Positions 2,490 to 44,116 of a stretch of DNA of 64,000 bases are shown piece by piece. The notes beneath the pieces are model-generated. The model made no database searches, was not told the DNA's origin, and saw nothing but the letters and a program-made list of their open reading frames with translations. Each line of letters opens with the position of its first letter. Within the stretch, counting starts at the first letter, position 1. The position numbers and the translations under genes are program-made. This DNA is from Salinispira pacifica (GTDB lineage: Bacteria; Spirochaetota; Spirochaetia; DSM-27196; Salinispiraceae): assembly GCF_000507245.1 (NCBI RefSeq), contig NC_023035.1, forward strand, positions 2,023,501 through 2,087,500, written 5' to 3'.

Positions 2490-3962
2490 TCACCCGCTGA
2501 TCTCTTTCCCGATCGCGCTGGAAACGATATCGGCTGCGATGAGAGTCATGGGAACCCCCACCCCCGGATGTGTATACTGCCCTGCGTAAAACACATTTTT
2601 CAAGTGCTTGTTCCGCATGGATGGTCTGAAGACCGCAGTCTGCCCCAGGGTATGTGCAAGCCCCAGGGCTGTTCCTTTAAGTGCGCCGTAATCTTCGGTA
2701 AAATCTTCACCGCTGTAATACCGCTGAACTTCTATGCTGTCCCGTATATTTTCTCCACAGAGATTTTCCAGATGCCTGATAATTTTATCGCCATACTCTT
2801 TGCGGAAATCCCGGTCCGCCGAGAGTCCGGGAGCCACAGGTACGAGAACAAACACATTTTCTTTACCTTCGGGGCTCATGCTGTCATCATCATCGCTGGT
2901 TACGCTGACATAGTATGAGGGATTGTCAGGCCAGGCCGGGTTTTTGAAGATCTCGTCGAAGTGGGTATTCCACTCCCGGGCAAAAAAGAGATTGTGATGT
3001 TTCAGACCTGGAAGCTTTTTTCCAACCCCCAGGTACATGATAAACATGGAGGGGGCAACTACAGCTTTCTCCCAGTATTTCGCCGAATAATTGCGTACTT
3101 CCTGATCCAGAAGTTTCTGTTCAATATGATGATAATCTCCGGTTGCAAGAACTACGTCTGCCTTAAATGTTCCGGCATCCGTTTCCACTCCGGTGGCCCT
3201 GCCGTCGGCATGAATAATCCGAGTGACATCAGTGTTCAGCCGGATATCCACTCCCATATCCTCAAGCAGACGATGCATACCCTCCACCATTTTGTTCATT
3301 CCGCCATGAGGGAAATATACACCCTGCACAAGGTCCACATGGCTCATGATGGAGTACAGCGCCGGTGCATTTGACGGGCTGTTGCCGAGGAACACCATCG
3401 CATATTCCAGGATTTTTTGAGCCCGGTGATCTTTGAAATATTTTTTCACATGAGAGTGCAGGTCCCCGAACACACCCAGCCGGCTACCCTGAAATACCAG
3501 CCGTGGGTTAATGAACTGGAAGATAGATCGGTATTCACGATACAAAAACTCTTCGATGGCCACCTTATACTTGTAGCTGGCCTTTTTCAGGTACTTTTCC
3601 AGCTTTTCACTGCCCTTCTTCTCCAAACCATCAAAAACGGCGTTAATACCGGAACGATCAGGACCGATATCGACGGACCCTTCATCTTCAAAAAACACCC
3701 GGTAATAGGGAGAGAGCTTCTTCAGGCTGTAATAATCAGCCCGATTTTTCCCCAGGTCATCAAAAAACTGCTCGAAAACCTCGGGCATCAGATACCATGA
3801 CGGGCCCATGTCGAAAGTATATCCCTGATCCTCCCAACTGCGGCCCCTGCCCCCCAAACGATCGTGACGCTCGAGGAGGGTAACATCCATACCCTGATGC
3901 TTCAATTTTGCTGCGCTTGCCATTCCGGCAAAACCGCCGCCGATTACCAACGCCTTTTTCAT
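2490..3962 (-). CDS. crtI: Phytoene desaturase family protein (CrtI-like)
   Basis: CrtI-type enzymes are FAD-dependent and desaturate or isomerise carotenoids at the membrane. The protein opens with a dinucleotide-binding motif, VIGGGFAGMASAAKL, followed by the FAD-family stretch LERHDRLGGRGRSW and TFDMGPSWYLMPEVF. The C-terminal signature GQYTHPGVGVPM is typical of CrtI/CrtN/CrtO. I start it at the ATG at 3962, because GGGAGA lies eight bases upstream and the Rossmann motif follows at once; the frame is open further upstream but that part looks non-coding. Length is 490 aa, normal for the family. With the downstream prenyl synthase it suggests pigment synthesis, as known for several free-living spirochaetes. 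The exact reaction is not determinable; no phytoene synthase or cyclase is in view. Confidence 0.88.
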   Translation of the reverse strand: MKKALVIGGGFAGMASAAKLKHQGMDVTLLERHDRLGGRGRSWEDQGYTFDMGPSWYLMPEVFEQFFDDLGKNRADYYSLKKLSPYYRVFFEDEGSVDIGPDRSGINAVFDGLEKKGSEKLEKYLKKASYKYKVAIEEFLYREYRSIFQFINPRLVFQGSRLGVFGDLHSHVKKYFKDHRAQKILEYAMVFLGNSPSNAPALYSIMSHVDLVQGVYFPHGGMNKMVEGMHRLLEDMGVDIRLNTDVTRIIHADGRATGVETDAGTFKADVVLATGDYHHIEQKLLDQEVRNYSAKYWEKAVVAPSMFIMYLGVGKKLPGLKHHNLFFAREWNTHFDEIFKNPAWPDNPSYYVSVTSDDDDSMSPEGKENVFVLVPVAPGLSADRDFRKEYGDKIIRHLENLCGENIRDSIEVQRYYSGEDFTEDYGALKGTALGLAHTLGQTAVFRPSMRNKHLKNVFYAGQYTHPGVGVPMTLIAADIVSSAIGKEISG

Positions 3963-4008
3963 GTAATTCTCCCATTCATTTGGTTTATTCTGATGCGGTA
4001 CTCTGGAC

Positions 4009-4037
4009 AATATAAAATCACAGTATGAAATATTCAA
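4009..4037 (-). promoter_or_regulatory. Predicted sigma70-type promoter of crtI
   Basis: On the minus strand there is a TTGAAT -35 box (4032-4037) and a TATATT -10 box (4009-4014) separated by exactly 17 bp, about 45 bp upstream of the crtI start. The spacing and AT-rich setting make it the best promoter candidate in the 346-bp crtI-ilvB intergenic region. The rest of that region is AT-rich; apart from this and the ilvB promoter I see no gene or structured RNA in it. Confidence 0.5.
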
Positions 4038-4253
4038 CACAAATTTCATTCCCTGCGAAAAGACGTTACCGCCGGTTCCCCCTCCTCTAAGACTGAACAT
4101 ATACTGCAATATTCACTATAAATATTTCAGACTCCTTTCCTGTACATGCATATATTTATGTCTTATATCGTGAGTTTTTTTGCCTTGCAGAAAATATTTG
4201 CTATATTTTTGCATATTTTTCGTAAGTTTTACGGGTTTTTCCGTTGTTTTGCA

Positions 4254-4283
4254 TTGACTTTGCGTTAATTTTCGTAATAATTA
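4254..4283 (+). promoter_or_regulatory. Predicted promoter of ilvBN
   Basis: A TTGACT -35 box lies at 4254-4259, and TAATAA (15-bp spacing) or TAATTA (18-bp spacing) could serve as the -10 box. The resulting leader to the ilvB ATG is about 20-30 nt, too short for an attenuator or T-box. A strong GGAGG Shine-Dalgarno sits at 4300-4304. Confidence 0.4.
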
Positions 4284-4308
4284 GAGGACATACAGAGCTG
4301 GAGGAACA

Positions 4309-6024
4309 ATGGATACTAAGACCAGAACAGGTGCAGAAGTAATTGTGGATGTTATACATCAGGAAGGCATCGAATACATCTTCGGATTGCCCGGAGGAGC
4401 CGCTATCCCCATCTTTGACGCTCTTGTGGATTCACCGGTTAAAATGATTCTCACCCGTCACGAGCAGGGAGCAACTCATATGGCCGACGGATACGCCCGG
4501 GCAACAGGTAAACCGGCGGTGGTTCTGGTTACCTCGGGTCCGGGGGCCACCAACACTATTACCGGTATTCTCACTGCTCAGATGGACTCCGTTCCGATGG
4601 TGATCATTACCGGACAAAACACCACATGGAATCTGGGACTGGATGCGTTCCAGGAAGCAGATGTTTCGGGTATTTCATTTCCCGTTGTAAAACACTCATA
4701 CCTGGTAAAGGACGGAAATGATCTTCCACGTATTATGCAGGAGGCCTTTCATATTTGTCAGTCCGGCAGACCGGGTCCTGTATTGGTTGATATTCCCAAA
4801 GATATCTCGTCCATGGTGGTTGAACCTGATTACGAACAGGATTTCCATTTGCCCGGATACCATATCCAGACTGAAGGGGATGAAAACTCAATTGCAACCG
4901 CAGCCCGGTTGCTTCAGAAAGCCAGTCGTCCTGTGCTTCTGGTGGGTCACGGCGCGGTAATTTCCGGTGCAGAGAAAGAAGTAATGGAGCTTGCCGAATC
5001 TCTCCGGATTCCGGTTACCAACACCCTTCTTGGAAAGGGCTGCTTTCCAGAAGACCATGAATTGAGCCTTGGAATGCTGGGAATGCATGGAACCGCCTAT
5101 GCCAATAAAGCAGTGGTGGACTGTGATCTGATTATGTCCATCGGTTCCCGCTGGGATGACCGGATTATCGGCAAACCCGAAGTGTTCTGCATGGATGCTA
5201 AAAAAATTCATGTGGATATTGATCCGGCGGAGTTCAACAAGATTCTCCAAATGGATGTGACCATTCAGGGAGATGCTAAAACCGTAATTTCCTCTCTCTT
5301 GAAATCCGTACAGCCCGGAGACACATCTGCATGGCTGAAACAAATACAGAAATGGAAGAAGGATCATCCCCTGAAATACCGCCGAACAGGAAAACTGTCA
5401 GCCCAGCATGTGATTGATGAAATGCATATCCAGTCCGGTGGAACCGCAATAGTAACCACAGACGTTGGTCAGCACCAGATGTGGGCCGCACAGTACTGCC
5501 GAACCAATGACCGCTTCCACTGGATCAGTTCCGGAGGTGCGGGCACCATGGGCTTCGGTTTTCCTGCTGCCATCGGCGCTCAGTTTGCCCATCCTGACAA
5601 GACGGTGGTTGCGGTGGTGGGTGACGGAGGGTTTCAAATGACCCTCAGCGAACTCTCCACGGCGGTAATTCATAAACTTCCTCTGAAAATAATTGTTGTG
5701 AACAACCGTTATCTGGGCATGGTACGTCAGTGGCAAAACCTCTTCTACGATAATCGGCTGTCAGGGGTGGATATGGAAGGAAATCCTGATTTCGTGAAAC
5801 TGGCGGAAAGCTACGGTGCAAAAGGTTTCAGGATTAAACGGAGTGCGGATGTAAAACGAATAATCCGCAGCTCCCTTGAATACAATCAGGGACCGGTTGT
5901 CATTGATGCAATGGTTGAAAAAGAAGGGAACGTATTTCCAATGATACCGGCCGGAGCGTCCCTCTCAGAAATGATTCTGGAGGAACCCAGGCACAAGATG
6001 GCCAAACCTGTGGGATCCACCTGA
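4309..6024 (+). CDS. ilvB: Acetolactate synthase large (catalytic) subunit
   Basis: This is the ThDP- and FAD-dependent enzyme that makes acetolactate or acetohydroxybutyrate, the first common step of branched-chain amino acid synthesis. It has the N-terminal ThDP Pyr domain with [16 protein letters not shown] and the catalytic Glu in [16 protein letters not shown] (about residue 50), the central FAD/Rossmann domain, and the C-terminal ThDP motif from [12 protein letters not shown] (about residue 438) to [14 protein letters not shown]. Its 571 aa match the family length. GGAGG lies five bases before the ATG. The small subunit follows 114 bp downstream on the same strand, which favours the anabolic AHAS over a catabolic acetolactate synthase. 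Confidence 0.96.
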
Positions 6025-33027: not shown

Positions 33028-36000
33028 CTAGTTTAATGGAAGCCCGAGACTGATATAAATTTCCTCCCTGAGTTCACGGAGAGGAGGATAGCGGCGGTTT
33101 TCTTCATCCTGCCACAGTTGGTCCACAATATTCCGGGCCCGGACCTGCTGATTATTCACATACCAATCGGTGGTGGCCTGCTCCAGAAGCGAACTGTCCA
33201 CCGATGACAGACTCACCGTGGTGGGGCGGCCCAGCTCGTAGAGAATATCGTCGATGAGATTGCCTGCCTGGAGGTTCGCAGGATACACCTGCTGGGCATC
33301 CTCGGCCAGGGCAAGGGCATTCTCAAGCCGGTTCACCGCCTCCTGCTCACTGCCGGCAGCTGAGGCGCTGGTGTAGAACTGTCGTGCCTGGCTCAGCAGA
33401 TTCTCCGATCGGTTCCGGTTGGCCACCTCCTGGGGAGATTCACGAATTCCCAGATCCACCTCCAGCTGCTGAATGGCCGATGTGATCCGGGAATTTCCCG
33501 GGGAAATCTCATCCAGGGCTTCAAGCCGGGTCAGGGAAACCTCCCGGAACTGCTGAAGACTCTGTCCCGGCTCGGTGTTTTCTTCCTGTACATCCTGAAT
33601 GATCTCATCAACCTGATCGTTGAAATAGCGTTGGAAATCATCAGGATTCTGCAGCCGCTGCAGCTCCAGGCGCAGCAGTTCGGCCTGGAAGTTTGATGGT
33701 TTCAGCTGGGTTACACTCACCAGATTTGACTCTGCAGAACTGATATTTCTTCTGAGCGTCTGATCATCCCCCCGCTCCGCAGCAGCCCTGGCCCGGGAAA
33801 CCGCCGACGACGCCAGGTTCAGGTATGAGCTCACCGTGGGATACAATGGATCGGTTTCGCTGAGTTCACGCTCCTGGGCAAGACTGTTGGCCGCAACGAT
33901 CAGCTCTTCCAGATATTCAATTGAGGGATCGGGTTCATCGGGACTGATCACCTCATGGTACTCCCGGGCGTCCGCAAGGAAGTTGAGAGCCGGTGCATAA
34001 TCCCCGTCATCGTAGCTTTCCTTGGCAGACGCAAGGGCTTCCCTCTTCCGGTCTGTGCTGATTCTCACAAGAAGATCGCCGATCTCTTCGCCCAGCTCAT
34101 CGCTGAGGTTCTCCCGCTCCTGCCGGATATCCGCATCCGCCTGAATGGCCAGAGAATCATCGTAACTTTCTATCATCAGGTCGAACTGACTCTGAGCCTG
34201 CTCATACTGGCTGTTGGCTATGGCAGAACGGGTCTCCTGTTCGGCAAAGCGGGCATCCTGAAGAAGATCCGATGCCTCATCAACCTGACGGGAGGCAATG
34301 CTGATTTTCGGTTCCAACTCATCAATCTCCTGCCGGGCCTCTTCAATGACTTCGGAGGATACATTCTGCAGTTCCCTCAGTTCAGCTGCATTCCTGACAA
34401 AGTCGGGGCTGGAATCTATTTGAGCGTTCAGGTCACGGGAAATATTTACAATATTTTCAAGCTCATCCAGAGCGTCGGTATATGCCTGGAGAGCATCTTC
34501 AGGATAGTAATAGATGAGCCCGTTATCCTGTTCGATTCCTTCCAGCCGCCGGTTCGCCACATCGATCTGATCCACCGCTTCAGCAAGGCGCTGGGGGGCA
34601 TCCTCCTGGCGGAACACCAGATAATCGTTGAAATAGCCGGTAACCGCAGTGCGGAGACGGGAGGCAATACGGTCTCTGTCGCTGTCATGCTGCTCCACTG
34701 CGGATACGCCCCGGGTGGATATTTCTTCAGGAATATCCTCAAACAGTCTTCCGGGCAAACTGTCCAGAGATGCAGCAAAGGGCCGGCTGAACTCGTCCAG
34801 GCTGCGAAGAGTATCCAGACCGGAATTGTATGCGGAAAGGGCCTCCTGGGCGGAAAGGGGATTCAGTCCTTCAAGATCGCGGTAATCCAATGCGAATGAT
34901 GCCAGCCCCAACCTTCCTGCCAGACGACGGAGGGTGATCAGAATATCTCCGGCTGATATTTCGTCTTCCGGGGGAACATATTCCATAACCTCCGGCGTCA
35001 GCCCGGACAGAAGGGCATTGCTTCCCTCAGTGTATATTCGCCAGATCTGGAAGCCCAGGACACTCAACTCCTGCACGGGAACCAGACTTTGGGAAACCTG
35101 CGCATATTCCTCTGCTGCATAGAGTGCGTCGCTCTGGTCTGCGTATTCCTGAATCCGGGGAATAATCAGATCGAAAACACGGGTCTTCTGTTCTCTGATG
35201 TACCGTTCTGCTGCGCCCCGTATTCCCTCGTTATCGTACTGCTGCGGCCCGTGGATAAACTGCTGGAGATACAGAAGGTATTCCGAATCATCACCCGGGT
35301 TCGCCTGAGATACATTCGAGGGGAAAATCTCTCTCAATTCACGGGAGCGCTGAGCCGACTGCACAAGCCGTTCTCTCAATGCTGCCTGGATTGAAAGGTT
35401 TTCGTACAGAGCTGCTACCGCTTCTTCGCCGCTGTAGGCCCCGGCGAGTTGAGCCGTGGCCCGGGCTGAACCGGGAACATCAATATCCGGCTGGTTTTCA
35501 TCAGGCTCCTGACCGTTCTCCGGGGTCGCCGGAGCACCGTTTTCCCCTCCGATTGCAGTTGTATTTTCTTCCGAGGCCGCCTCCCCGCTTTGGTTCCCGC
35601 CGAGAAATACCTGAAAATTTCCGGATTCCGATGCCCGAAGCGCGTCCGAGGAATCCGGGGGGAATATCCGGGCGAACTCGCCGCTGAAACCGCCGATACT
35701 CCCTCCGGTTTCATCAGCCTGGCTGATGTAGGAACGGCTGGTTTCGGTTACGCTTGAGAGGAGATTATCAACCTGATTCAAATACAGATCGCCGGGGCCG
35801 GTTGCAAGGAATTCCTCCCGCTGAAGATCGAAACTCCGGGTATAAAACCCCTTTTCATCGATATCATCAATGGTGAGATACCGGTCTATTGCGGCAAGAT
35901 ATTCCCCCTGAAGGATCAGATCGTGGGCCTGTTCGATGATCCGGTCCCGATACCCGCGGTCAACCGCCAGCTTTACCCGGGCCTTGTTATCGGCAATCTG

Positions 36001-36555
36001 GCGGGCGGTTCCCGGATCAGGATCGGGGAACAGGGATTCCATCCGGCTGATAATTTCAAGAGCTTCTTCTTCGTCAAAAGGATCATCGGGATCGTTGGGA
36101 TCCTTCCGCAGTTCCGCCAGAAGGCTGTTGAGAAGGGTATTGTATTCACTGCGTACATTCCGAATTACCCCGATCTTCTGCTCTGCTTCATCGAAGCGCT
36201 GGGGGTGAAAGGCCATAACCTGAGTGAGCATTTCGATGGAGGCGTTGTACTCCTTGGCCTGAAACAGGGCATCTGCCAACAGCATTCGTACATCGGCAAT
36301 TTCTGAATCGGAGCGGTCCGGCTGGGTGATAAAATCTTCCAGAAGCCCCCGGAGAATGCGGGATGCCTCCCGGGCATTTTCAACCCGGCCTTCTTCTTCA
36401 AGATTCCGCTCCCGCAGCAGTGAGCGGGCCTGACCGTAGCGTTCTTCGGACACACCTCCGGCGTACAGGAATCCCGGGACTCTAACGGCGAACAGAGTGA
36501 GAAGAATGAGAAATATCAGCTTCCTAGAGCCTGCACACAGATTCAAAACCTCCAA
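33028..36555 (-). CDS. Giant secreted helical-repeat (TPR-like) protein
   Basis: The 1175-aa protein has an N-terminal signal sequence (LIFLILLTLFAVRVPGFLYAGG) and is almost wholly alpha-helical and acidic. It has TPR-like repeats near the N-terminus (ADALFQAKEYNASIEMLTQVM; EYLAAIDRYLTIDDI) and long coiled-coil-like stretches later. A disordered Gly/Glu-rich linker lies near residues 340-370. It ends 26 bp before the SpoIIE sensor gene, so the two are probably co-expressed and may interact outside the membrane. The start is uncertain: in-frame TTG at 36555, TTG at 36546 and CTG at 36540 surround a GGAGG. No family is recognised beyond TPR-like. Confidence 0.75.
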   Translation of the reverse strand: MEVLNLCAGSRKLIFLILLTLFAVRVPGFLYAGGVSEERYGQARSLLRERNLEEEGRVENAREASRILRGLLEDFITQPDRSDSEIADVRMLLADALFQAKEYNASIEMLTQVMAFHPQRFDEAEQKIGVIRNVRSEYNTLLNSLLAELRKDPNDPDDPFDEEEALEIISRMESLFPDPDPGTARQIADNKARVKLAVDRGYRDRIIEQAHDLILQGEYLAAIDRYLTIDDIDEKGFYTRSFDLQREEFLATGPGDLYLNQVDNLLSSVTETSRSYISQADETGGSIGGFSGEFARIFPPDSSDALRASESGNFQVFLGGNQSGEAASEENTTAIGGENGAPATPENGQEPDENQPDIDVPGSARATAQLAGAYSGEEAVAALYENLSIQAALRERLVQSAQRSRELREIFPSNVSQANPGDDSEYLLYLQQFIHGPQQYDNEGIRGAAERYIREQKTRVFDLIIPRIQEYADQSDALYAAEEYAQVSQSLVPVQELSVLGFQIWRIYTEGSNALLSGLTPEVMEYVPPEDEISAGDILITLRRLAGRLGLASFALDYRDLEGLNPLSAQEALSAYNSGLDTLRSLDEFSRPFAASLDSLPGRLFEDIPEEISTRGVSAVEQHDSDRDRIASRLRTAVTGYFNDYLVFRQEDAPQRLAEAVDQIDVANRRLEGIEQDNGLIYYYPEDALQAYTDALDELENIVNISRDLNAQIDSSPDFVRNAAELRELQNVSSEVIEEARQEIDELEPKISIASRQVDEASDLLQDARFAEQETRSAIANSQYEQAQSQFDLMIESYDDSLAIQADADIRQERENLSDELGEEIGDLLVRISTDRKREALASAKESYDDGDYAPALNFLADAREYHEVISPDEPDPSIEYLEELIVAANSLAQERELSETDPLYPTVSSYLNLASSAVSRARAAAERGDDQTLRRNISSAESNLVSVTQLKPSNFQAELLRLELQRLQNPDDFQRYFNDQVDEIIQDVQEENTEPGQSLQQFREVSLTRLEALDEISPGNSRITSAIQQLEVDLGIRESPQEVANRNRSENLLSQARQFYTSASAAGSEQEAVNRLENALALAEDAQQVYPANLQAGNLIDDILYELGRPTTVSLSSVDSSLLEQATTDWYVNNQQVRARNIVDQLWQDEENRRYPPLRELREEIYISLGLPLN

Positions 36556-36638: not shown

Positions 36639-37949
36639 ATGAAAAAATTTTTCCCCATATTAATGACAATTCTAATGTACAGCTGTTTCACCGGCTTTTC
36701 CGCATGGTCTCAGGAATACCAGGATTATCTGTCGGATATTTTTGACACATTTCCCGGCCTGCAGAATCCGGAAAACACCGGGCTCACCACCCTCCCCGTA
36801 CTGGAAATCTCCGCCGGTGGTGAACAGCGAAACCTGGGGAACGCATACACGGCGGTGGCCAGGGATGTTTCATTTATGGAGGCGAATGCCGCCGCAAGTT
36901 CCATCCTTGAGTTCACAGAGCTGGCCTTTTATCACCGGAACATCATCAGCGACGTAAGCCTGGACTCGGTATTCTTCACCCGCCGGCACAACAACTTCGG
37001 CTACGGTTTTGCGGGAAAATTCCTTCATTTCGAGTTTACCAGGATGGACAGCCGGGGGAACCAGGTTGCCGCAGCCAATCCCAGCGAGATGGTGTTCGCC
37101 GCCAATGCCTCCTATAACTTCCTGGATAATTTTTACTCAAGCGGCCTGGCCCTGGGAGTGAACCTTAAACTGGCTCACCGGAATGTTCCCGGTCAATTAT
37201 ACCGCGGAGTTCTGGATCCCGATGAGTACAATCAGAATCTCTTTGCCTTCATGGGCGACATCGGCCTGCTCTCCCGGTTCAATTTTCTCAAGGGATATGC
37301 CGCCCGGGACAAGAACTTCTCCGTGGGCGCCACCGTACTCAATCTCGGCCCTCCGGTTAAGGGAGACGCCCTTCCCACCGAGGCTGTTGCAGGAATCTCC
37401 TACCGGCCCCTGCGGTTTATCATGATCAGCTCGGATATAAATTACATGATGAACCTGGTGGATTTCACCAAATCCGAGGGACTGGGTTTTGCCCTGGGTG
37501 CGGATTTCCGGTTCGTTGATTTTTTCTCCATTCAAACCGGTCTTGACTGGAAGGGGTACAACCCCTCGCTGAGTTTCGGAGCGGATGTTAATCTTGAACC
37601 GGTGAGCTTTCAGGTGAACTATACCCTGGATCTCAGCACTTCGGTAAACAGTGTGGATAATTTTTCCGTGGCAGCTTCAGTCAATTTCGGCGATGAAGGC
37701 AGGGAAGCGCTTCAGAACATGGTGGATGAATTATATATTCAGGCCCTCAGCGCATTAAGCAACGGGGAATTCCGCAGAGTAATTGAACTTTGCGACAGAA
37801 TTATCGACCGGGAAACAGGACTTGATCCCAGTTTCACCCCCGCTTACCGCACCCGTGAAGTTGCCCTGACCACCCTGGAACGGGAGGCGGAGTTCAGGGA
37901 CTTTGAACAGAATCGGACAGAGGAAGATCAGAACGAAGCAGACGAATAA
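36639..37949 (+). CDS. UPF0164 family predicted outer-membrane beta-barrel protein
   Basis: The 436-aa protein has a signal peptide (ILMTILMYSCFTGFSAWSQ). The family pattern follows: LEISAGGEQRNLGNAYTAVA, EANAAASSILEFTELAFYHR, then alternating beta strands with aromatic ends (NNFGYGFAGKFLHFEFTRM). UPF0164 proteins occur in several copies in Treponema and are modelled as FadL-like porins for hydrophobic substrates. The last ~75 residues are helical and charged (TPR-like) after the barrel. It is divergent from the giant helical protein. TATAAT at 36623-36628 lies only ten bases before the ATG, so the leader would be very short. Confidence 0.85.
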   Translation: MKKFFPILMTILMYSCFTGFSAWSQEYQDYLSDIFDTFPGLQNPENTGLTTLPVLEISAGGEQRNLGNAYTAVARDVSFMEANAAASSILEFTELAFYHRNIISDVSLDSVFFTRRHNNFGYGFAGKFLHFEFTRMDSRGNQVAAANPSEMVFAANASYNFLDNFYSSGLALGVNLKLAHRNVPGQLYRGVLDPDEYNQNLFAFMGDIGLLSRFNFLKGYAARDKNFSVGATVLNLGPPVKGDALPTEAVAGISYRPLRFIMISSDINYMMNLVDFTKSEGLGFALGADFRFVDFFSIQTGLDWKGYNPSLSFGADVNLEPVSFQVNYTLDLSTSVNSVDNFSVAASVNFGDEGREALQNMVDELYIQALSALSNGEFRRVIELCDRIIDRETGLDPSFTPAYRTREVALTTLEREAEFRDFEQNRTEEDQNEADE

Positions 37950-38709
37950 GGGCGTACAGCTGCTCGTCCCTGCTTGAATAGATTGCCGGCGACACGGCGG
38001 AATTGGAATGTCCGTCAGCCCTGTTTCTCACACTCCGCTCAATCGCCTTATCGATCCGCTTTTTCTTCCGGGGTTTCAGCATATCCCCCAGCTGCTGCTG
38101 AAGAATTCTCAATTCATCCACGGCGCCCTGTTCAGCTTCATCCGCTGCCAAATCCCTGCGCAGCTGCCCGAAAAGATCTTCAGGTATGGCAGCGCCGCTT
38201 TCGCCGGCACCGCTTATCTGCTGAAAAATCCTCTCCAGCTTTACCAGATGGACGCTCTGGGAAAAATTAATCCGGTCCACCTTCTTTTTGAGAAGAATCT
38301 TCCGTTCCAGGGCAGGTTTGCTCAACTGTCCTTTCCGGTCCATTACCAGGTAGGTGGTTACCGCCGCAGCACTTGCCACCAGCAATTCATCCACCAGGGG
38401 GATCATATCCCGGATGGCGAAGGAGAGCATGAAAAAGACCACAAAGAACACTCCCAGGGAAAGGAGAAAACGGGGGATAAAGCGGTGTTCAGCCATCCAC
38501 TCCCTGACCTCCCGGTCAACTTCACCGTACAGGGTATTGCGCACAAGGGCCATGGCTTCCACTTCGGGATCGGATCCATAGCGTCCTTCTATGGCCGCAT
38601 CATCGGGGATGCTGCCGATTCGGCTGCCCTCGGAGAAGGGATGGATAATAAATGGCAGATTCCGGCCGTCGGCCAGAAGAAATATTAATCGTCGGCTGCT
38701 GTTCTTCAT
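37894..38709 (-). CDS. Two-TM membrane protein of unknown function
   Basis: The 271-aa protein has an N-terminal cytoplasmic part (about 85 aa), two close transmembrane helices (FLLSLGVFFVVFFMLSFAI and LLVASAAAVTTYLVMD) and a long charged helical C-terminal region. No known family is evident. Its 3' end overlaps the 3' end of the convergent UPF0164 gene by 56 bp. It directly abuts the TIR-like/ankyrin gene (stop and start adjacent), so it belongs to the DnaE-led operon. Confidence 0.7.
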   Translation of the reverse strand: MKNSSRRLIFLLADGRNLPFIIHPFSEGSRIGSIPDDAAIEGRYGSDPEVEAMALVRNTLYGEVDREVREWMAEHRFIPRFLLSLGVFFVVFFMLSFAIRDMIPLVDELLVASAAAVTTYLVMDRKGQLSKPALERKILLKKKVDRINFSQSVHLVKLERIFQQISGAGESGAAIPEDLFGQLRRDLAADEAEQGAVDELRILQQQLGDMLKPRKKKRIDKAIERSVRNRADGHSNSAVSPAIYSSRDEQLYALIRLLRSDLPLSDSVQSP

Positions 38710-39621
38710 CTATTCAAATAAACTAACGATTTCCGGGCTATTAAACAAGCGGGCATATTTTTCTGCGGTCATTCCCAGCTGGTCGGTTACACTCAAATCG
38801 CAGCCGGCTTCGATGAACAGGGAAGATATCTGAGCGAATCCCTCACCCACCGCCATCATGAGTCCGGTCTGGCCGCTTTTACTCTGCACATCCGGATCAG
38901 CGCCGGCGGCCAAAAGCAGACGCACCAGCTCGGTCTGACCGGTGGATGCGGCATCCATTACCGGAGTATTCCCCCGGTCACCGCTCACCGCATTGGGATC
39001 GGCTCCGTTTTCCAGAAGCAGAACAATAATATCATCATGGCCTCCCCGAACCGCATGGTTGAGAAGGGCAACATCTTTCGAATCACAGGTGTCCGGGGAA
39101 AATCCTACGGTGAGAAAAAGCTCCACCACATCCCGGCGGTTATCCGCCACCGCATCCACAAACACCTGATCATTCAGACCGAAGCCTCTGCCGATGAGCT
39201 CTTCCCTGGCCTCTTCAACCCGGCAATAGATCTGGTGACGCTCCACTTCCTCGTGAAGAGCATCCATGAGTGCAGGGGCGTCTCCGTATACGGGAAATGT
39301 ATTCAGATAATGGGGAAACTTCTTTTCACTTTCACGGTAGAACAGGAGCACGCTCCGGTTCCCCATGGCGTAACCGGCAAGATAACTCAGCCAGCGGGAT
39401 CCGGGAGAACGTTCATCGAGAATCATGACAATATGGGAATAGCGGCGCAGCTGAAATGCAAGCTCGCCGCCGTCCAGCTCCTCCCAGTTGCTTCCTATCT
39501 CCAGCCCCTGAATGTTCGAAAATTCCGAGGCCAGTCGCTTCAAGAGGGCATTCCCCTGTTCCGATGCGCTGCTTAGAAATATTAAACCCAACAGTATGTG
39601 ATCACCCGACTTTTCGGCCAC
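38710..39621 (-). CDS. TIR-like N-terminal domain with ankyrin repeats
   Basis: Residues 1-125 look like a TIR- or related nucleotide-binding alpha/beta fold: LGLIFLSSASEQGNALLKRL, YSHIVMILDERSPGSRWLSY (compare the S-x-W box of TIR domains), and SVLLFYRESEKKFPHYL. From about residue 150 there are four to five ankyrin repeats (DVALLNHAVRGGHDDIIVLL, NTPVMDAASTGQTELVRLLL, QTGLMMAVGEGFAQISSLFI). There is no signal peptide. The start is a GTG with GGGGGAG six bases upstream; it overlaps the polymerase reading frame by 20 bp, so translation is probably coupled. The ankyrin call is firm. The TIR-like call is tentative, as no catalytic Glu could be fixed by eye. Confidence 0.72.
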   Translation of the reverse strand: MAEKSGDHILLGLIFLSSASEQGNALLKRLASEFSNIQGLEIGSNWEELDGGELAFQLRRYSHIVMILDERSPGSRWLSYLAGYAMGNRSVLLFYRESEKKFPHYLNTFPVYGDAPALMDALHEEVERHQIYCRVEEAREELIGRGFGLNDQVFVDAVADNRRDVVELFLTVGFSPDTCDSKDVALLNHAVRGGHDDIIVLLLENGADPNAVSGDRGNTPVMDAASTGQTELVRLLLAAGADPDVQSKSGQTGLMMAVGEGFAQISSLFIEAGCDLSVTDQLGMTAEKYARLFNSPEIVSLFE

Positions 39622-40111
39622 TACACGCTCCCCCAGCTCCTTCAGTATACAAGGAATCGGAAAAATATCTACTCTTCACATATCGGCGGTTCAGAGGATA
39701 AAGATGAGTGATATGTATGCTCACCGCACCAAGATCCTCTTTCACATCTCCCTGAATAATATATGCCATGGCAAGATCCAGCAAAGGGGCGAGGCGCTCA
39801 TACGCCCGGGGGAAAAACACCGTCTCAAACAGACCGAAACGGTCTTCGAAACTGATAAACGACATTGCCTTCTGATGCTTTGTGTACACCTCCTTTCCGC
39901 TCACCAGATACCCGGCGATATACACCTCCCGATTGCAGAACTCCATCAGCTGCCGGGAAACGATGAAGGGTGAAAACCCCCTGCGGCGGGCGATCTTTTC
40001 GGCACGGGGGAGAAAAATGGTAAGTGGATGCATGGTGACAAACAGGCCCAGGGTCTCCCCCTCGTCCCGGATCTTCCGGGCAGGGCCGTAGTCCCCGGCC
40101 TCCCCCCCCAC
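39602..40111 (-). pseudogene. C-terminal part of DnaE, separated by a frameshift
   Basis: This frame carries the end of a DnaE polymerase: GLFVTMHPLTIFLPRAEKIA, REVYIAGYLVSGKEVYTKHQ and the OB fold FISFEDRFGLFETVFFPRAY. The upstream frame holds the rest of the enzyme and runs out of phase at a C8 run (40102-40109, plus strand). One extra C there, or in the C4 run at 40111-40114, joins QDMPVQG directly to GGEAGDYGPARK. It should be read as the last ~165 residues of the polymerase. Confidence 0.85.
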
Positions 40112-42960
40112 CCCTGCACCGGCATATCCTGAAAGAGCTCCTCCCCTGCGCCGCCGTGGCGAAGATCCCGCAGGCGCTTCATTCCCAAACTCAGCCGCCA
40201 GAACATTCCCGGCCGGGTAAGCCCGTCTTCCAGGCCGTCCAGGGCGCCGCTTTTGATCAACGCCCGGGTCTGGAGAATATCCGTGGGCACCCGGATCTGG
40301 AAGTCTTCAAACGACCTGAAGGGCCCGGAATTCTCCCTTGAGGATACAATCCGCTCCATGCTGTTCACCGAAAGTCCGGATATCTGCATGAGCCCGGTCC
40401 TCAATGCCCTGGGCGCCGCCGTGTTCGAATGTCCGCCGGGGCGGGGAGTCAGATGATCCGACTCCCCGGTCTGTTCCACACTGTAGAGAATTTCCGAACG
40501 GTTGACGTGGGGAAGAAGCACCGGATGCCCCAGACGGCGAACGGCGTTCACATAGGTCTGGCGGCTGTAGTAGCCTCCCCCGTTGTTGATCACTGCGGTA
40601 AAAAACTCCAGGGGATATCGCCTTTTCAGCCAGGCAAGTTTATAGGATACCAGGGCATAGGAGGCCGAATGGGGCTTGCAGAAAGAGTAGCCGCTGAACG
40701 AAAGCACCATCTCCCAGAGCAGATCCATTTTCTCTTGGGATATGCCCCGCTGCAGTCCTCCCTGAACAAAGCTCTGCCGCCAGTCTTCCAGCTTGAGACT
40801 CCGGTCTTTCCGGCTGAGAACCTTCCGCAGTGTGTCCGCCTCTCCTGGGGTGAACCCGCTGACGGAAATGGCCACCCGGGACACATCCTCCTGATACACC
40901 ATGATTCCCCGGGTCTCCCCAAGAACATCCTTCACCTCAGGAACCAGGGGCTCCCAGCTCTTGCCGTGAAGACGCTCCACGAATTCATTGATATAGCGGT
41001 TTGCCGCCGGGCGGATAATGGAGCTTGCGATCACCAGATGTTCATAATCCCCCCGGCGCATCTTCCGCAAAAGCTGCCGGGTGGCCGGACTCTCCACGTA
41101 AAAGACGCCCAGGGTGTTCCCTCCCTCAATAAACTGCCGGGTCTCGGCATCTCTCAGGGGCTTGAGATTATTCCAGCTCAGGGACCGGCCGTGGAGGCGG
41201 TTCACCATGGAGATACAGTCCCGGAGCACACCAAGACTGCGGTTGCCCAGAATATCGATCTTGATGAGCCCTGCATCTTCTGCGGCATCTTTCTCCCAGG
41301 CAATCACCGGCCATCCCAGGGGGGAAATCTGGGTGTGCACATAGCTGCTGATGGGCCCGGGGGTGATCACCACCCCTCCGGGGTGGGTTCCCATATAGCG
41401 GGGAATGCCCCGGATGGCGGATGCCTCCCGCTGCAGCCATTGGGGAAGACGGTCCCGCTGCCCCAACTTCCACATCCGGATAAACCGGCCGATCTCCTCA
41501 TCGTCCACACCCATTGCCTTGGCCGGTTCCCGTATGGAAGAACGGGGACCGAAGGTCACATGGTCTGCCACCATGGCGGACTGTCCGGGGTAGGTCCGGA
41601 AAACATATGAAAGGGTTTTCTCCCGTTCATCCCAGGGGAAGTCCACGTCGATATCCGGAGGATCCTCTCTGTCCATGTTCAAAAACCGCTCAAAAAAGAG
41701 ATTATGCTCCAGGGGATCCACGTGGGTGATGCCCAGGGTGTAGCTCACAATGCTGGCCGCAGCGCTTCCCCTCCCGCAGGTTCGGGGGGTCTGGCGGACA
41801 ATATCGTGCACCACCAGGAAGTAGGTCGCGAACCCCTTCCGCCGGATAATATCCAGTTCATAGTCCAGCCGTTCCTGCACCTCCGGCCCCGGGCTCCCGT
41901 AGCGCTTCAGCGCCCCCCTGCGGCAGAGCCCGGAAAGCCGCCGCCAGGCCTGATCCTCGTTCAGCCCCCGAAAACCCGGAAAAATGACCCGTCCGGGCAT
42001 GAGAAAATCCGCCGAACCTGCACCCAGAATCGCGGCGCTCTGTTCCCTCTCGGCGGCGAACATGGCGAAGCGGCTTTCCGCTTCCTCCCGGGAAATGAGG
42101 CGCTGGGAGAGAGGGGTGCGCTCACTCTCATCCAGCCTGGCTTTGGTGGTGCACAGGTCTATGGCCCGCAGAAGGTCAATACGCTCACGCTCTTCGGGGG
42201 TCTGCCAGCTCCCCCAGCAGATGCTCACGGCCTTCATGCCCCGGCGGGCGGCCCGGCTGCGCAGCTCTCTGGGGGAAACATCCGGGAACATGCCCGGGAA
42301 AATGTTCAGGGGGGCGGGGTTCGCCGGCAGCCCCCCCAGTGATGCCCGGGATAGCGAATGGGCCGGCGGCATCGGAATGACCGACGGAAGGACCGGCGGA
42401 AGGCCCGCCGGCATCGGATGAGCCTGTGCAGCCGGAGAGACAGGAGAGGCCGGCTGTTCCCGGCCCTGCAGCAGTTTGTCCAGATGTTCCAGCCTGGATG
42501 GATGAATGATAATGCTCAGATCAGCAAGCTCCCGGGGAGATTCGGCCAGTTCAAGCAGGGCGGCCAGGTTCTCAAGGGGGGCGGGAAAGGCGGAGGTTTT
42601 CCCGCCCGGTTTGTGCTTTGTGTTTGGGTGCGGATTTTGGTTTGGAGTACTGCCGGGGGGCGGGATCTGCCGCCCTCCGTTTCGGATAATCAGCCGGTTC
42701 AGCAGGGCAAAGCCCGCCCTGCTGTGAAACAGCACCGGCAGGGGTACTGCGGGGTCAGAGGAAATATCAACCGCCACGTGGGGGGCAATTCCCGCCCGTC
42801 TGCATGCCGCCACAAAGCGCAGTGCGCCGTACATGTTCATCCAGTCGCAGATCACCGCATCTTTGCAGCCCCGGGACCGGGCAATGGCGGCAATATCTTC
42901 CGGACTTTTGCATCCCCGCAGAAGGGAAAAATAGCTTCGCATCATCAACATACTAATCAT
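39946..42960 (-). CDS. DNA polymerase III alpha subunit, second (DnaE2-like) type; 3' end frameshifted
   Basis: The PHP-like N-terminus (YFSLLRGCKSPEDIAAIARS) lacks the HxH metal motif, as in DnaE2/ImuC enzymes. The polymerase core has DPPDIDVDFPWDEREKTL with the catalytic aspartates, MGTHPGGVVI, and YSFCKPHSASYALVSYKLAW, a variant typical of accessory rather than replicative DnaE. A helix-hairpin-helix region (ALRTGLMQISGLSVNSMERI) follows. Real coding sequence ends near 40110, and the last ~55 residues of this frame are out of phase. The whole protein would be about 1115 aa. Start options are ATG 42960, 42951 or 42942, all inside or next to a 22-bp palindrome. No imuA/imuB neighbours are present. 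Likely role: translesion or repair synthesis. Confidence 0.85.
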   Translation of the reverse strand: MISMLMMRSYFSLLRGCKSPEDIAAIARSRGCKDAVICDWMNMYGALRFVAACRRAGIAPHVAVDISSDPAVPLPVLFHSRAGFALLNRLIIRNGGRQIPPPGSTPNQNPHPNTKHKPGGKTSAFPAPLENLAALLELAESPRELADLSIIIHPSRLEHLDKLLQGREQPASPVSPAAQAHPMPAGLPPVLPSVIPMPPAHSLSRASLGGLPANPAPLNIFPGMFPDVSPRELRSRAARRGMKAVSICWGSWQTPEERERIDLLRAIDLCTTKARLDESERTPLSQRLISREEAESRFAMFAAEREQSAAILGAGSADFLMPGRVIFPGFRGLNEDQAWRRLSGLCRRGALKRYGSPGPEVQERLDYELDIIRRKGFATYFLVVHDIVRQTPRTCGRGSAAASIVSYTLGITHVDPLEHNLFFERFLNMDREDPPDIDVDFPWDEREKTLSYVFRTYPGQSAMVADHVTFGPRSSIREPAKAMGVDDEEIGRFIRMWKLGQRDRLPQWLQREASAIRGIPRYMGTHPGGVVITPGPISSYVHTQISPLGWPVIAWEKDAAEDAGLIKIDILGNRSLGVLRDCISMVNRLHGRSLSWNNLKPLRDAETRQFIEGGNTLGVFYVESPATRQLLRKMRRGDYEHLVIASSIIRPAANRYINEFVERLHGKSWEPLVPEVKDVLGETRGIMVYQEDVSRVAISVSGFTPGEADTLRKVLSRKDRSLKLEDWRQSFVQGGLQRGISQEKMDLLWEMVLSFSGYSFCKPHSASYALVSYKLAWLKRRYPLEFFTAVINNGGGYYSRQTYVNAVRRLGHPVLLPHVNRSEILYSVEQTGESDHLTPRPGGHSNTAAPRALRTGLMQISGLSVNSMERIVSSRENSGPFRSFEDFQIRVPTDILQTRALIKSGALDGLEDGLTRPGMFWRLSLGMKRLRDLRHGGAGEELFQDMPVQGWGGRPGTTALPGRSGTRGRPWACLSPCIHLPFFSPVPKRSPAAGGFHPSSFPGS

Positions 42961-42971
42961 ATGTTTAGTAT
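42950..42971. promoter_or_regulatory. 22-bp palindrome over the DnaE start (operator candidate)
   Basis: Half sites ATACTAA and TTAGTAT surround a CATATG centre. Ten of eleven base pairs are symmetrical. It overlaps the first possible dnaE start codon. The position and symmetry suggest a repressor site; an SOS (LexA-type) role would fit the polymerase class but the motif is not one I know. Confidence 0.5.
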
Positions 42972-43210
42972 TAATAGCCGGGAGAATCAATATCTATTCC
43001 GCCGGAAAATCAGGAAATCCGACCACACACCGGCACCGGGCTTGTCTGTCCGGCTGCTGTCTCCGCCTCCCCCACAACGGCCTGGAAAAGCTTGCCAATT
43101 CCTGAATGGTGATATAGTTTGATACTGATGATGCAGGAGGCGACGGACCGCTTCGGCCCCGTGACAGCTGAGCCCCTGATCTGCGGAGAACGGAAAAACG
43201 GAGACAAGAT

Positions 43211-44116
43211 ATGCAGCCCTTCAAGACCCCCGGAAACACCAGAATTCTCGACTGCTCCCGCCCCCTCTTTCACAAAGGCGGGACAGGGAAACCGGGCGTA
43301 CTGCTCATTCACGGCTTTACCGGAAGCCCCCACGACATGGGCTATCTGTTTGAGCGGCTGACGCAGGAAGGGTACACGGTAAGCGTACCCCGTCTGCCGG
43401 GTCACGGCACCAACGGAGAGGACTTCCAAAGCTGCAGATGGACCGACTGGTACCGCAGTGCAAGCGAAGCCTTGCTGGAACTGCGCTCGGAGCTTGAAGG
43501 CGGATCCGGGAAAATCATGATCGCCGGCTTATCCATGGGAGGCATTATTGCCGCCTTGCTGGCTGCCCAGTTCAAGGCGGATGACCTGATCCTCCATGCC
43601 CCGGGCTTCCTGTTCACCCCGGGTTCCGGAGCATCCTGGCTCTGGGCGTCCAAATACTTTGCGCCCTTTATTTCATCCCTGGGCGCCGGGGCGGAAGAAC
43701 GCAGCGCAGGGATGAAAAATTCCAAACGGAGAGACCACATGGGCAGGCCCATCAGCGGAGACAGAGTTATTCTGGACAATGAATACAAAAACCGTTCGTG
43801 GATCCGCCAAGGCAACGAACTGATGAAAATGCGCAGAAGGGCAATCCGCCGGCTGAAAGATATCAGCTGTCCGGTGCAGATCGTGGTTTCCAGAAACGAC
43901 AGTACCGTCCATTACAGCACCGGAACCTTTCTGAAAAAGCGGATGTCCAATGCATTGTCGGTGGAAGTTGTCGAGCTGAAAGACAGCGAACACATCGTTG
44001 TGGACGACAGCGAGCGGGAAATTGTGGCCGACAGCCTCCTGGGGCGGCTGAGCCGATTGCACGGCACCGGAACCGGCAGGCAGCGGGATGAGGCGGCGGC
44101 CGGCTCGCACACATGA
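43211..44116 (+). CDS. Alpha/beta hydrolase, carboxylesterase/monoacylglycerol lipase-like
   Basis: The 301-aa protein has HGFTGSPHDM (oxyanion region), the nucleophile elbow IAGLSMGGIIAALLA, an acid residue in VVSRNDSTVHYST and the catalytic His in DSEHIVVDDSERE. The spacing matches Est30-type carboxylesterases. A middle insertion of about 60 residues (KYFAPFISSLGAGAEERSAG onwards) forms the cap. There is no signal peptide, so it is cytoplasmic. GGAGA lies seven bases before the ATG. It is divergent from the DnaE operon with about 250 bp between, where I see only the palindrome. Confidence 0.87.
   Translation: MQPFKTPGNTRILDCSRPLFHKGGTGKPGVLLIHGFTGSPHDMGYLFERLTQEGYTVSVPRLPGHGTNGEDFQSCRWTDWYRSASEALLELRSELEGGSGKIMIAGLSMGGIIAALLAAQFKADDLILHAPGFLFTPGSGASWLWASKYFAPFISSLGAGAEERSAGMKNSKRRDHMGRPISGDRVILDNEYKNRSWIRQGNELMKMRRRAIRRLKDISCPVQIVVSRNDSTVHYSTGTFLKKRMSNALSVEVVELKDSEHIVVDDSEREIVADSLLGRLSRLHGTGTGRQRDEAAAGSHT

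What the first reader, a model, noticed from the sequence alone, without database searches (positions are those of the whole stretch)
37894..42960. TIR-like/ankyrin protein coupled to an accessory polymerase and a two-TM protein
The ankyrin gene starts inside the end of dnaE with a coupled GTG, and its stop abuts the start of the two-TM gene. Its N-terminal domain resembles TIR-type folds (SHIVMILDERSPGSRWLSY). TIR effectors are known in phage defence, and linking one to DNA-damage polymerase control plus a membrane protein could be a damage-triggered response or defence module.
Basis: inference. Interest (0 to 1): 0.52.

Follow-up and report, generated by a model that had tools for sequence, protein, structure and literature searches.

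The report
Inactive TIR-like ankyrin pair in spirochaetes
An old, vertically inherited spirochaete gene pair (a cytoplasmic TIR-like/ankyrin protein and a small membrane protein) sits behind an accessory DNA polymerase gene; it looks like a housekeeping scaffold rather than a phage-defence weapon, because the residue that makes TIR enzymes toxic is missing in every relative examined.

Summary
The gene layout is real. The 303-aa ankyrin protein (ANK) starts with GTG inside the end of an accessory dnaE, and its stop touches the ATG of the two-TM gene (TM2). The genome matches Salinispira pacifica exactly in size. Two corrections matter. This dnaE is split between two frames at a run of eight G. 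The N-domain is TIR-like (profile match 87%, best of seven tried; AlphaFold topology fits) but has a hydrophobic or small residue where TIR NADases carry their catalytic Glu: Glu/Asp in 0 of 58 relatives. The order is not unique. ANK-TM2 adjacency recurs in 20 of 40 order-level loci and in several other families. dnaE-ANK recurs in nine further loci, and those DnaEs form one clade. ANK also stands alone across the class, next to murG, rodA, a PBP or dnaX-ntrBC; one gene appears to be T. pallidum TP0502. Nothing in the nine proteins scanned points to defence beyond generic ankyrin repeats. Best reading: an ancient spirochaetal membrane-anchored scaffold with a dead TIR-like domain, possibly in envelope growth. 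The tie to the polymerase is real in some lineages and unexplained. The TIR resemblance is supported; the defence or damage-response role is not.

The parts
39602..42990 (-). accessory dnaE (C-family polymerase, DnaE2-like), in two frames: ORF 39946-42990 and ORF 39602-40111
   Evidence: Pfam DNA_pol3_alpha 2.5e-56, finger 4.3e-33, PHP, HHH_6; second ORF carries the OB fold; homology switches frame
40102..40109 (-). run of eight G (C on the + strand) where the dnaE frame changes
   Evidence: sequence and BLASTP against L042, L050, L196
38710..39621 (-). ANK: TIR-like N-domain, long helix, ankyrin repeats; GTG start inside the dnaE end
39277..39594 (-). TIR-like domain, about residues 10-115 (b1 11-16, a1 17-31, b2 37-42, a2 51-58, b3 63-67, a3 76-87, b4 91-95)
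   Evidence: AF2 model pLDDT 91.1; hhalign with TIR_2
39379..39381 (-). codon of Leu81, the place of the TIR catalytic Glu (W77+4)
   Evidence: Glu/Asp in 0 of 58 N-domains
38713..39180 (-). ankyrin repeats, about residues 148-303
   Evidence: Pfam Ank_2 4.2e-24; VIA-align Z 24.8 to DARPins over residues 148-303
37894..38709 (-). TM2: two-helix membrane hairpin, N- and C-terminal parts probably in the cytoplasm (inferred from charges)
   Evidence: helices 77-98, 105-128; pLDDT 79.1
36639..37949 (+). UPF0164 protein, conserved convergent neighbour
   Evidence: PF03687 1.7e-46; neighbourhoods
33028..36555 (-). large TPR-like protein, conserved neighbour
   Evidence: only weak TPR hits in Pfam
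43211..44116 (+). alpha/beta hydrolase, divergent conserved neighbour
   Evidence: Hydrolase_4 4.5e-18

Best explanation
ANK and TM2 are a spirochaete core gene pair, not a mobile defence module. ANK is a cytoplasmic adaptor: a TIR-like Rossmann-type domain that has lost the catalytic Glu, a long helix and about four ankyrin repeats. TM2 is an inner-membrane hairpin with cytoplasmic ends. Most likely the ankyrin surface or the TIR-like domain binds TM2, so the pair forms a membrane-anchored scaffold that gathers or senses a partner by protein binding, not NAD cleavage. The best guess for its field is envelope growth. Shown: adjacency and its recurrence, family spread, TIR-like similarity, missing Glu, DnaE clade. 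Inferred: binding of ANK to TM2, cytoplasmic topology, scaffold role, envelope link. Unexplained: why one DnaE2-like clade lies directly upstream of ANK in several families; common ancestry of the block with repeated loss of dnaE would fit.
For: TM2 in 42 of 46 genomes of the order. ANK directly before TM2, same strand, in 20 of the 40 order loci read (two of the other 20, L062 and L065, are cut by the contig end); 29 loci in all, none more than about 70 nt apart. N-domain in 67 of 392 and TM2 in 54 of 392 phylum genomes, nearly all in the class. Glu/Asp at the TIR catalytic place in 0 of 58; W46 in 53, W77 in 44 and G83 in 57 of 58. TIR_2 profile match 86.9% against control values of 0.2-12%. 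Neighbours: murG-cvpA-dnaX in f10 and f14, rodA with mreB, mreD and a PBP in G101, a PBP1A-like gene in G318 (one 71-aa ORF between), M23 peptidase after TM2 in f11 and f18, polysaccharide deacetylase in G288.
Against: No interaction, localisation or phenotype data. ANK and TM2 are often unlinked or alone (f11, f10, f14, f17). The envelope theme does not explain the dnaE link.
Confidence: 0.45

Rival explanations
1. Damage or replication module: ANK-TM2 tethers or regulates the accessory DnaE2-like polymerase at the membrane, and was later kept for another use where dnaE was lost.
For: dnaE directly upstream of ANK, same strand, in nine loci besides the window, in f1, f3, f11, f25 and the B11_G9 genome; nine ANK-linked DnaEs form one clade (97/99), with the polymerase aspartates present in the eight of these that cover the PDxD motif and in all nine for the third Asp; the nearest rows G424 and G238 lie by an ImuB-like Y-family gene. 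ANK also lies near dnaX in f10, f14 and f23.
Against: ANK and TM2 persist in many genomes without this DnaE; the window genome and G373 have a broken dnaE but keep ANK; only one Y-family gene, not beside dnaE, in each of the ten ANK-linked genomes. Regulatory sites were not tested.
Confidence: 0.2
2. Phage-defence or abortive-infection module with a TIR effector and a membrane partner.
For: TIR-like domain; PADLOC models PDC-M72A and MzaA match ANK.
Against: Catalytic Glu absent in all 58; PADLOC matches cover only ankyrin residues 153-294 or less; no defence hit in the eight other proteins of the block scanned; inheritance in conserved synteny.
Confidence: 0.06
3. Unrelated housekeeping genes kept together by slow rearrangement and shared transcription, with no joint function.
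For: ANK and TM2 each occur without the other, and ANK has many different neighbours.
Against: Tight spacing and same-strand order in 29 loci over many families; PGM lies by ANK in f22 and by TM2 in f17.
Confidence: 0.25

Closest known systems
Pfam TIR_2 (PF13676) and ThsB_TIR (PF08937) domains
   Same: Order of strands and helices; the helix region after the third strand is aligned by profile (86.9% and 43%); weak hits of the N-domain profile to PDB 3hyn (0.11) and 9uv0 ThsB (0.19)
   Different: No catalytic Glu (0 of 58); no Pfam hit for the window domain; fused to ankyrin repeats
PADLOC candidate system PDC-M72A
   Same: Ankyrin region matches (E 4e-22, residues 153-294)
   Different: Match restricted to generic ankyrin repeats; no other defence-model match in the block
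T. pallidum TPASS_0502 / TP0502 'ankyrin repeat protein' (PMC5951579, passage seen)
   Same: G101 (1,139,633 bp, taken as T. pallidum by size, a recalled figure) has an ANK homologue after mreB, mreD, a PBP and rodA
   Different: No TM2 match and only one DnaE match in that genome
DnaE2-ImuA-ImuB mutagenesis cassette (PMC3919608, passages seen)
   Same: Polymerase clade is nearest to the DnaEs of G424 and G238, which lie by an ImuB-like gene; first PHP histidines lost, as the paper reports a missing metal site for most DnaE2
   Different: ANK-linked DnaE has no ImuB-like gene beside it

Membership tests
TIR-domain NADase | TIR fold | tested here: inconclusive
   AF2 topology and hhalign 86.9% agree with TIR, but the fold search was filled by ankyrin matches and the domain was not folded alone
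TIR-domain NADase | catalytic Glu in the W-x-x-x-E helix | tested here: not met
   L, V, A, I, F, M, T or S there in 58 of 58; Glu at W+5 in 3 of 58
TIR-domain NADase | sequence score over a TIR family cut-off | tested here: not met
   no Pfam hit for the window domain; TIR_2 in 2 of 19 members, best E 0.018; G000 has no TIR_2 or ThsB_TIR match
TIR-domain NADase | NAD cleavage | not testable with these tools
   needs an assay
Known anti-phage system (PADLOC) | match of effector and partner genes to defence models | tested here: not met
   only ankyrin-repeat matches of ANK; none for the eight other proteins scanned
DnaE2-ImuAB cassette | imuB beside dnaE2 | tested here: not met
   single IMS gene in G000 at 1,687,653, far from dnaE at 2,063,449
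DnaE2-ImuAB cassette | LexA-regulated | not tested
   no LexA or SOS-box search was made
Ankyrin-repeat protein | ankyrin repeats | tested here: met
   Ank_2 4.2e-24; Z 24.8, rmsd 1.4 over 155 residues

The most novel reading that the evidence does not exclude
A class-wide spirochaetal signalling scaffold in which a catalytically dead, possibly ligand-sensing TIR-like domain on ankyrin repeats is held at the inner membrane by TM2 and links cell-wall growth to an orphan DnaE2-like polymerase; its ANK part is retained even in the reduced genome of T. pallidum, where it follows rodA.
Probability: 0.15. Interest if true: 0.7.

Novelty: new variant of a known kind. Interest (0 to 1): 0.4.

Why it matters
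It marks an uncharacterised protein family kept across many spirochaete families, including a genome taken to be that of the syphilis agent. It warns that TIR resemblance alone does not mean defence: no member examined has the catalytic residue. The steady pairing with a membrane protein, and with one polymerase clade, gives a concrete genetic test in cultivable spirochaetes.

Tried and rejected
Defence-module reading: rejected on the missing Glu, the neighbours and inheritance. Whole-model fold searches listed only ankyrin or DARPin-bearing chains; the N-domain was not tested by fold, and no TIR chain appeared in those lists. TM2 gave no Foldseek match below E 0.76. Single-sequence searches gave nothing for the N-domain in NCBIfam, Pfam or the PDB. 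c33 (the large protein before TM2 in f11 and f18) is not a detectable relative of the large TPR protein. Literature: 'TP0502' and 'TP_0502/TP0835' found no paper, and three combinations with ankyrin found none relevant; the search with defence terms found one paper, seen in the listing only. PMC5607219 was opened on an ankyrin hit that proved to be a rabbit gene.

Rows set aside: in the DnaE tree, G108acc and G417_C31 were wrong-frame ORFs and are not counted in the clade statement. Because of G108acc the tool scored the label ANKlinked as two changes. In one search I chose the 20 genomes: nine with dnaE by ANK already seen, the window, and ten without; so 'the clade is found only where ANK is next to it' (10 of 10, against 0 of 10) is partly circular. 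In G373 dnaE is in pieces and a 250-aa ORF lies between the piece that matches and ANK; I read that ORF as a DnaE end piece by eye, without a call. Of the 41 order genomes with TM2 besides G000, 40 were fetched (G029 left out).
Full report
What is there. The window lies in a single-contig genome of 3,782,798 bp. That is exactly the published length of Salinispira pacifica L21-RPul-D2, sequenced with PacBio and checked with Illumina and 454 reads (PMC4511686, passages seen). One thing was missed: dnaE changes frame at a run of eight G (40102-40109), while relatives L042 and L050 have it open. It may be a pseudogene, a slippage site or a sequencing error; coupling of ANK translation to dnaE depends on which.

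The N-domain. AlphaFold2 on 19 sequences gave pLDDT 91.1, with strands and helices in the order b-a-b-a-b-a-b, then a long helix and ankyrin repeats. Because the ankyrin part fills fold searches, the N-domain was tested by profile. The profile of 58 N-domains gave 86.9% (E 4e-6) against 11 TIR_2 domains, 43% against 9 ThsB_TIR domains, and 0.6 (receiver), 12 (MurG), 0.2 (KsgA), 0.4 (Sir2) and 1.2 (PGM) against five controls. These E-values are for single comparisons. Weak further signs point the same way: PDB 3hyn and ThsB 9uv0 (E 0.11, 0.19; the best PDB hit, E 0.0044, is a designed Rossmann protein), and TIR_2 in 2 of 19 members. That W-x-x-x-E holds the catalytic Glu of TIR NADases is recalled knowledge; the Glu is visible in the TIR_2 domains printed. 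In the ANK family that place is L 17, V 12, A 11, I 6, F 5, M 4, T 2, S 1: no Glu or Asp in 58. Three of 58 have Glu one place later.

Spread. TM2 was found in 42 of 46 genomes of the order. Of 40 order loci read, 20 have ANK directly before TM2; in 18 no ANK is recognised there, and in two the contig ends. Across the class, 29 loci (28 genomes) show the pair, always overlapping or within about 70 nt. In the phylum sample the N-domain was found in 67 of 392 genomes and TM2 in 54 of 392, almost all in the class. These are lower bounds: ANK was missed but seen by other profiles in L196, L199 and L238. The two are not always linked: in f11 they lie on different contigs, f10 and f14 have ANK without a TM2 match, and f17 has TM2 without a clear ANK (one weak N-domain match, E 3.3e-4, in G397).

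The polymerase link. dnaE precedes ANK on the same strand in nine loci besides the window: f1 (L042), f3 (L050), f25 (L196), f11 (L175, L208, L226, L230, L232) and MAG B11_G9 (L094). L042, L050, L196 and L094 also have TM2 next, so the three-gene order recurs. In a tree the nine usable ANK-linked DnaEs form one clade (97/99), nearest to DnaEs of G424 and G238, which lie beside an ImuB-like Y-family gene. The aspartates of the polymerase site are present (PDxD in the eight rows that cover it, the third Asp in all nine), and the first PHP histidines seen in the primary DnaEs are lost. The ten genomes with the ANK-linked form have one Y-family gene each, not beside it. So it is a real, old association with a DnaE2-like polymerase outside the usual mutagenesis cassette. 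Its meaning is open, since most genomes keep ANK or TM2 without it.

Neighbourhood. UPF0164 and a large TPR-like protein follow TM2 in most order loci outside f2 and in several other families. Elsewhere ANK precedes murG-cvpA-dnaX (f10, f14), follows ntrC (f20), follows rodA (G101) or a PBP1A-like gene with one short ORF between (G318), or lies by PGM, queA, Sir2, RF-1, polysaccharide deacetylase or cyclase genes. TM2 lies between a large unknown protein and an M23 peptidase in f11 and f18, and between PGM and comEC-ksgA in f17. This is a housekeeping setting. The envelope genes stand out, but without a base rate this is only a suggestion. PADLOC models match ANK through its ankyrin repeats alone, and match none of the eight other proteins of the block scanned.

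How it may work. Shown: gene layout, recurrence, missing Glu, DnaE clade. Inferred: ANK is an adaptor whose TIR-like domain binds proteins or a ligand; TM2, a hairpin with basic flanks (RFIPR before, KKK after), holds it at the inner membrane. The TM2 model (pLDDT 79.1) has no significant PDB match. The envelope reading is preferred over the polymerase reading because ANK and TM2 outlive dnaE, but both remain possible.

Verdict. The TIR-like fold is likely right, an active TIR effector is unlikely, defence is unlikely, and the gene order is conserved rather than unique. I found no functional study of the family in the searches; the library holds open-licence papers only.

Noticed in passing
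window 40102-40109: Run of eight G where the accessory dnaE changes frame; G373 also has this dnaE in pieces.
   Followed up: partly
L189 (G005) 3542-4822: In G005 the unlinked ANK gene is followed on the same strand by a tyrosine recombinase (Phage_integrase).
   Followed up: no
L251 (G424), L252 (G238): Accessory DnaE beside an ImuB-like Y-family gene: probable mutagenesis cassettes in spirochaetes.
   Followed up: no
L201 5918-9421; L204: A large protein of 900-1200 aa (the L201 copy has no Pfam match) lies directly before TM2 in f11 and f18, followed by an M23 peptidase.
   Followed up: partly
L002-L005 (G000:C1:1665049-1666497): A second ankyrin-rich open frame (616 aa) elsewhere in the genome, without a match to the TIR-like domain.
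   Followed up: no
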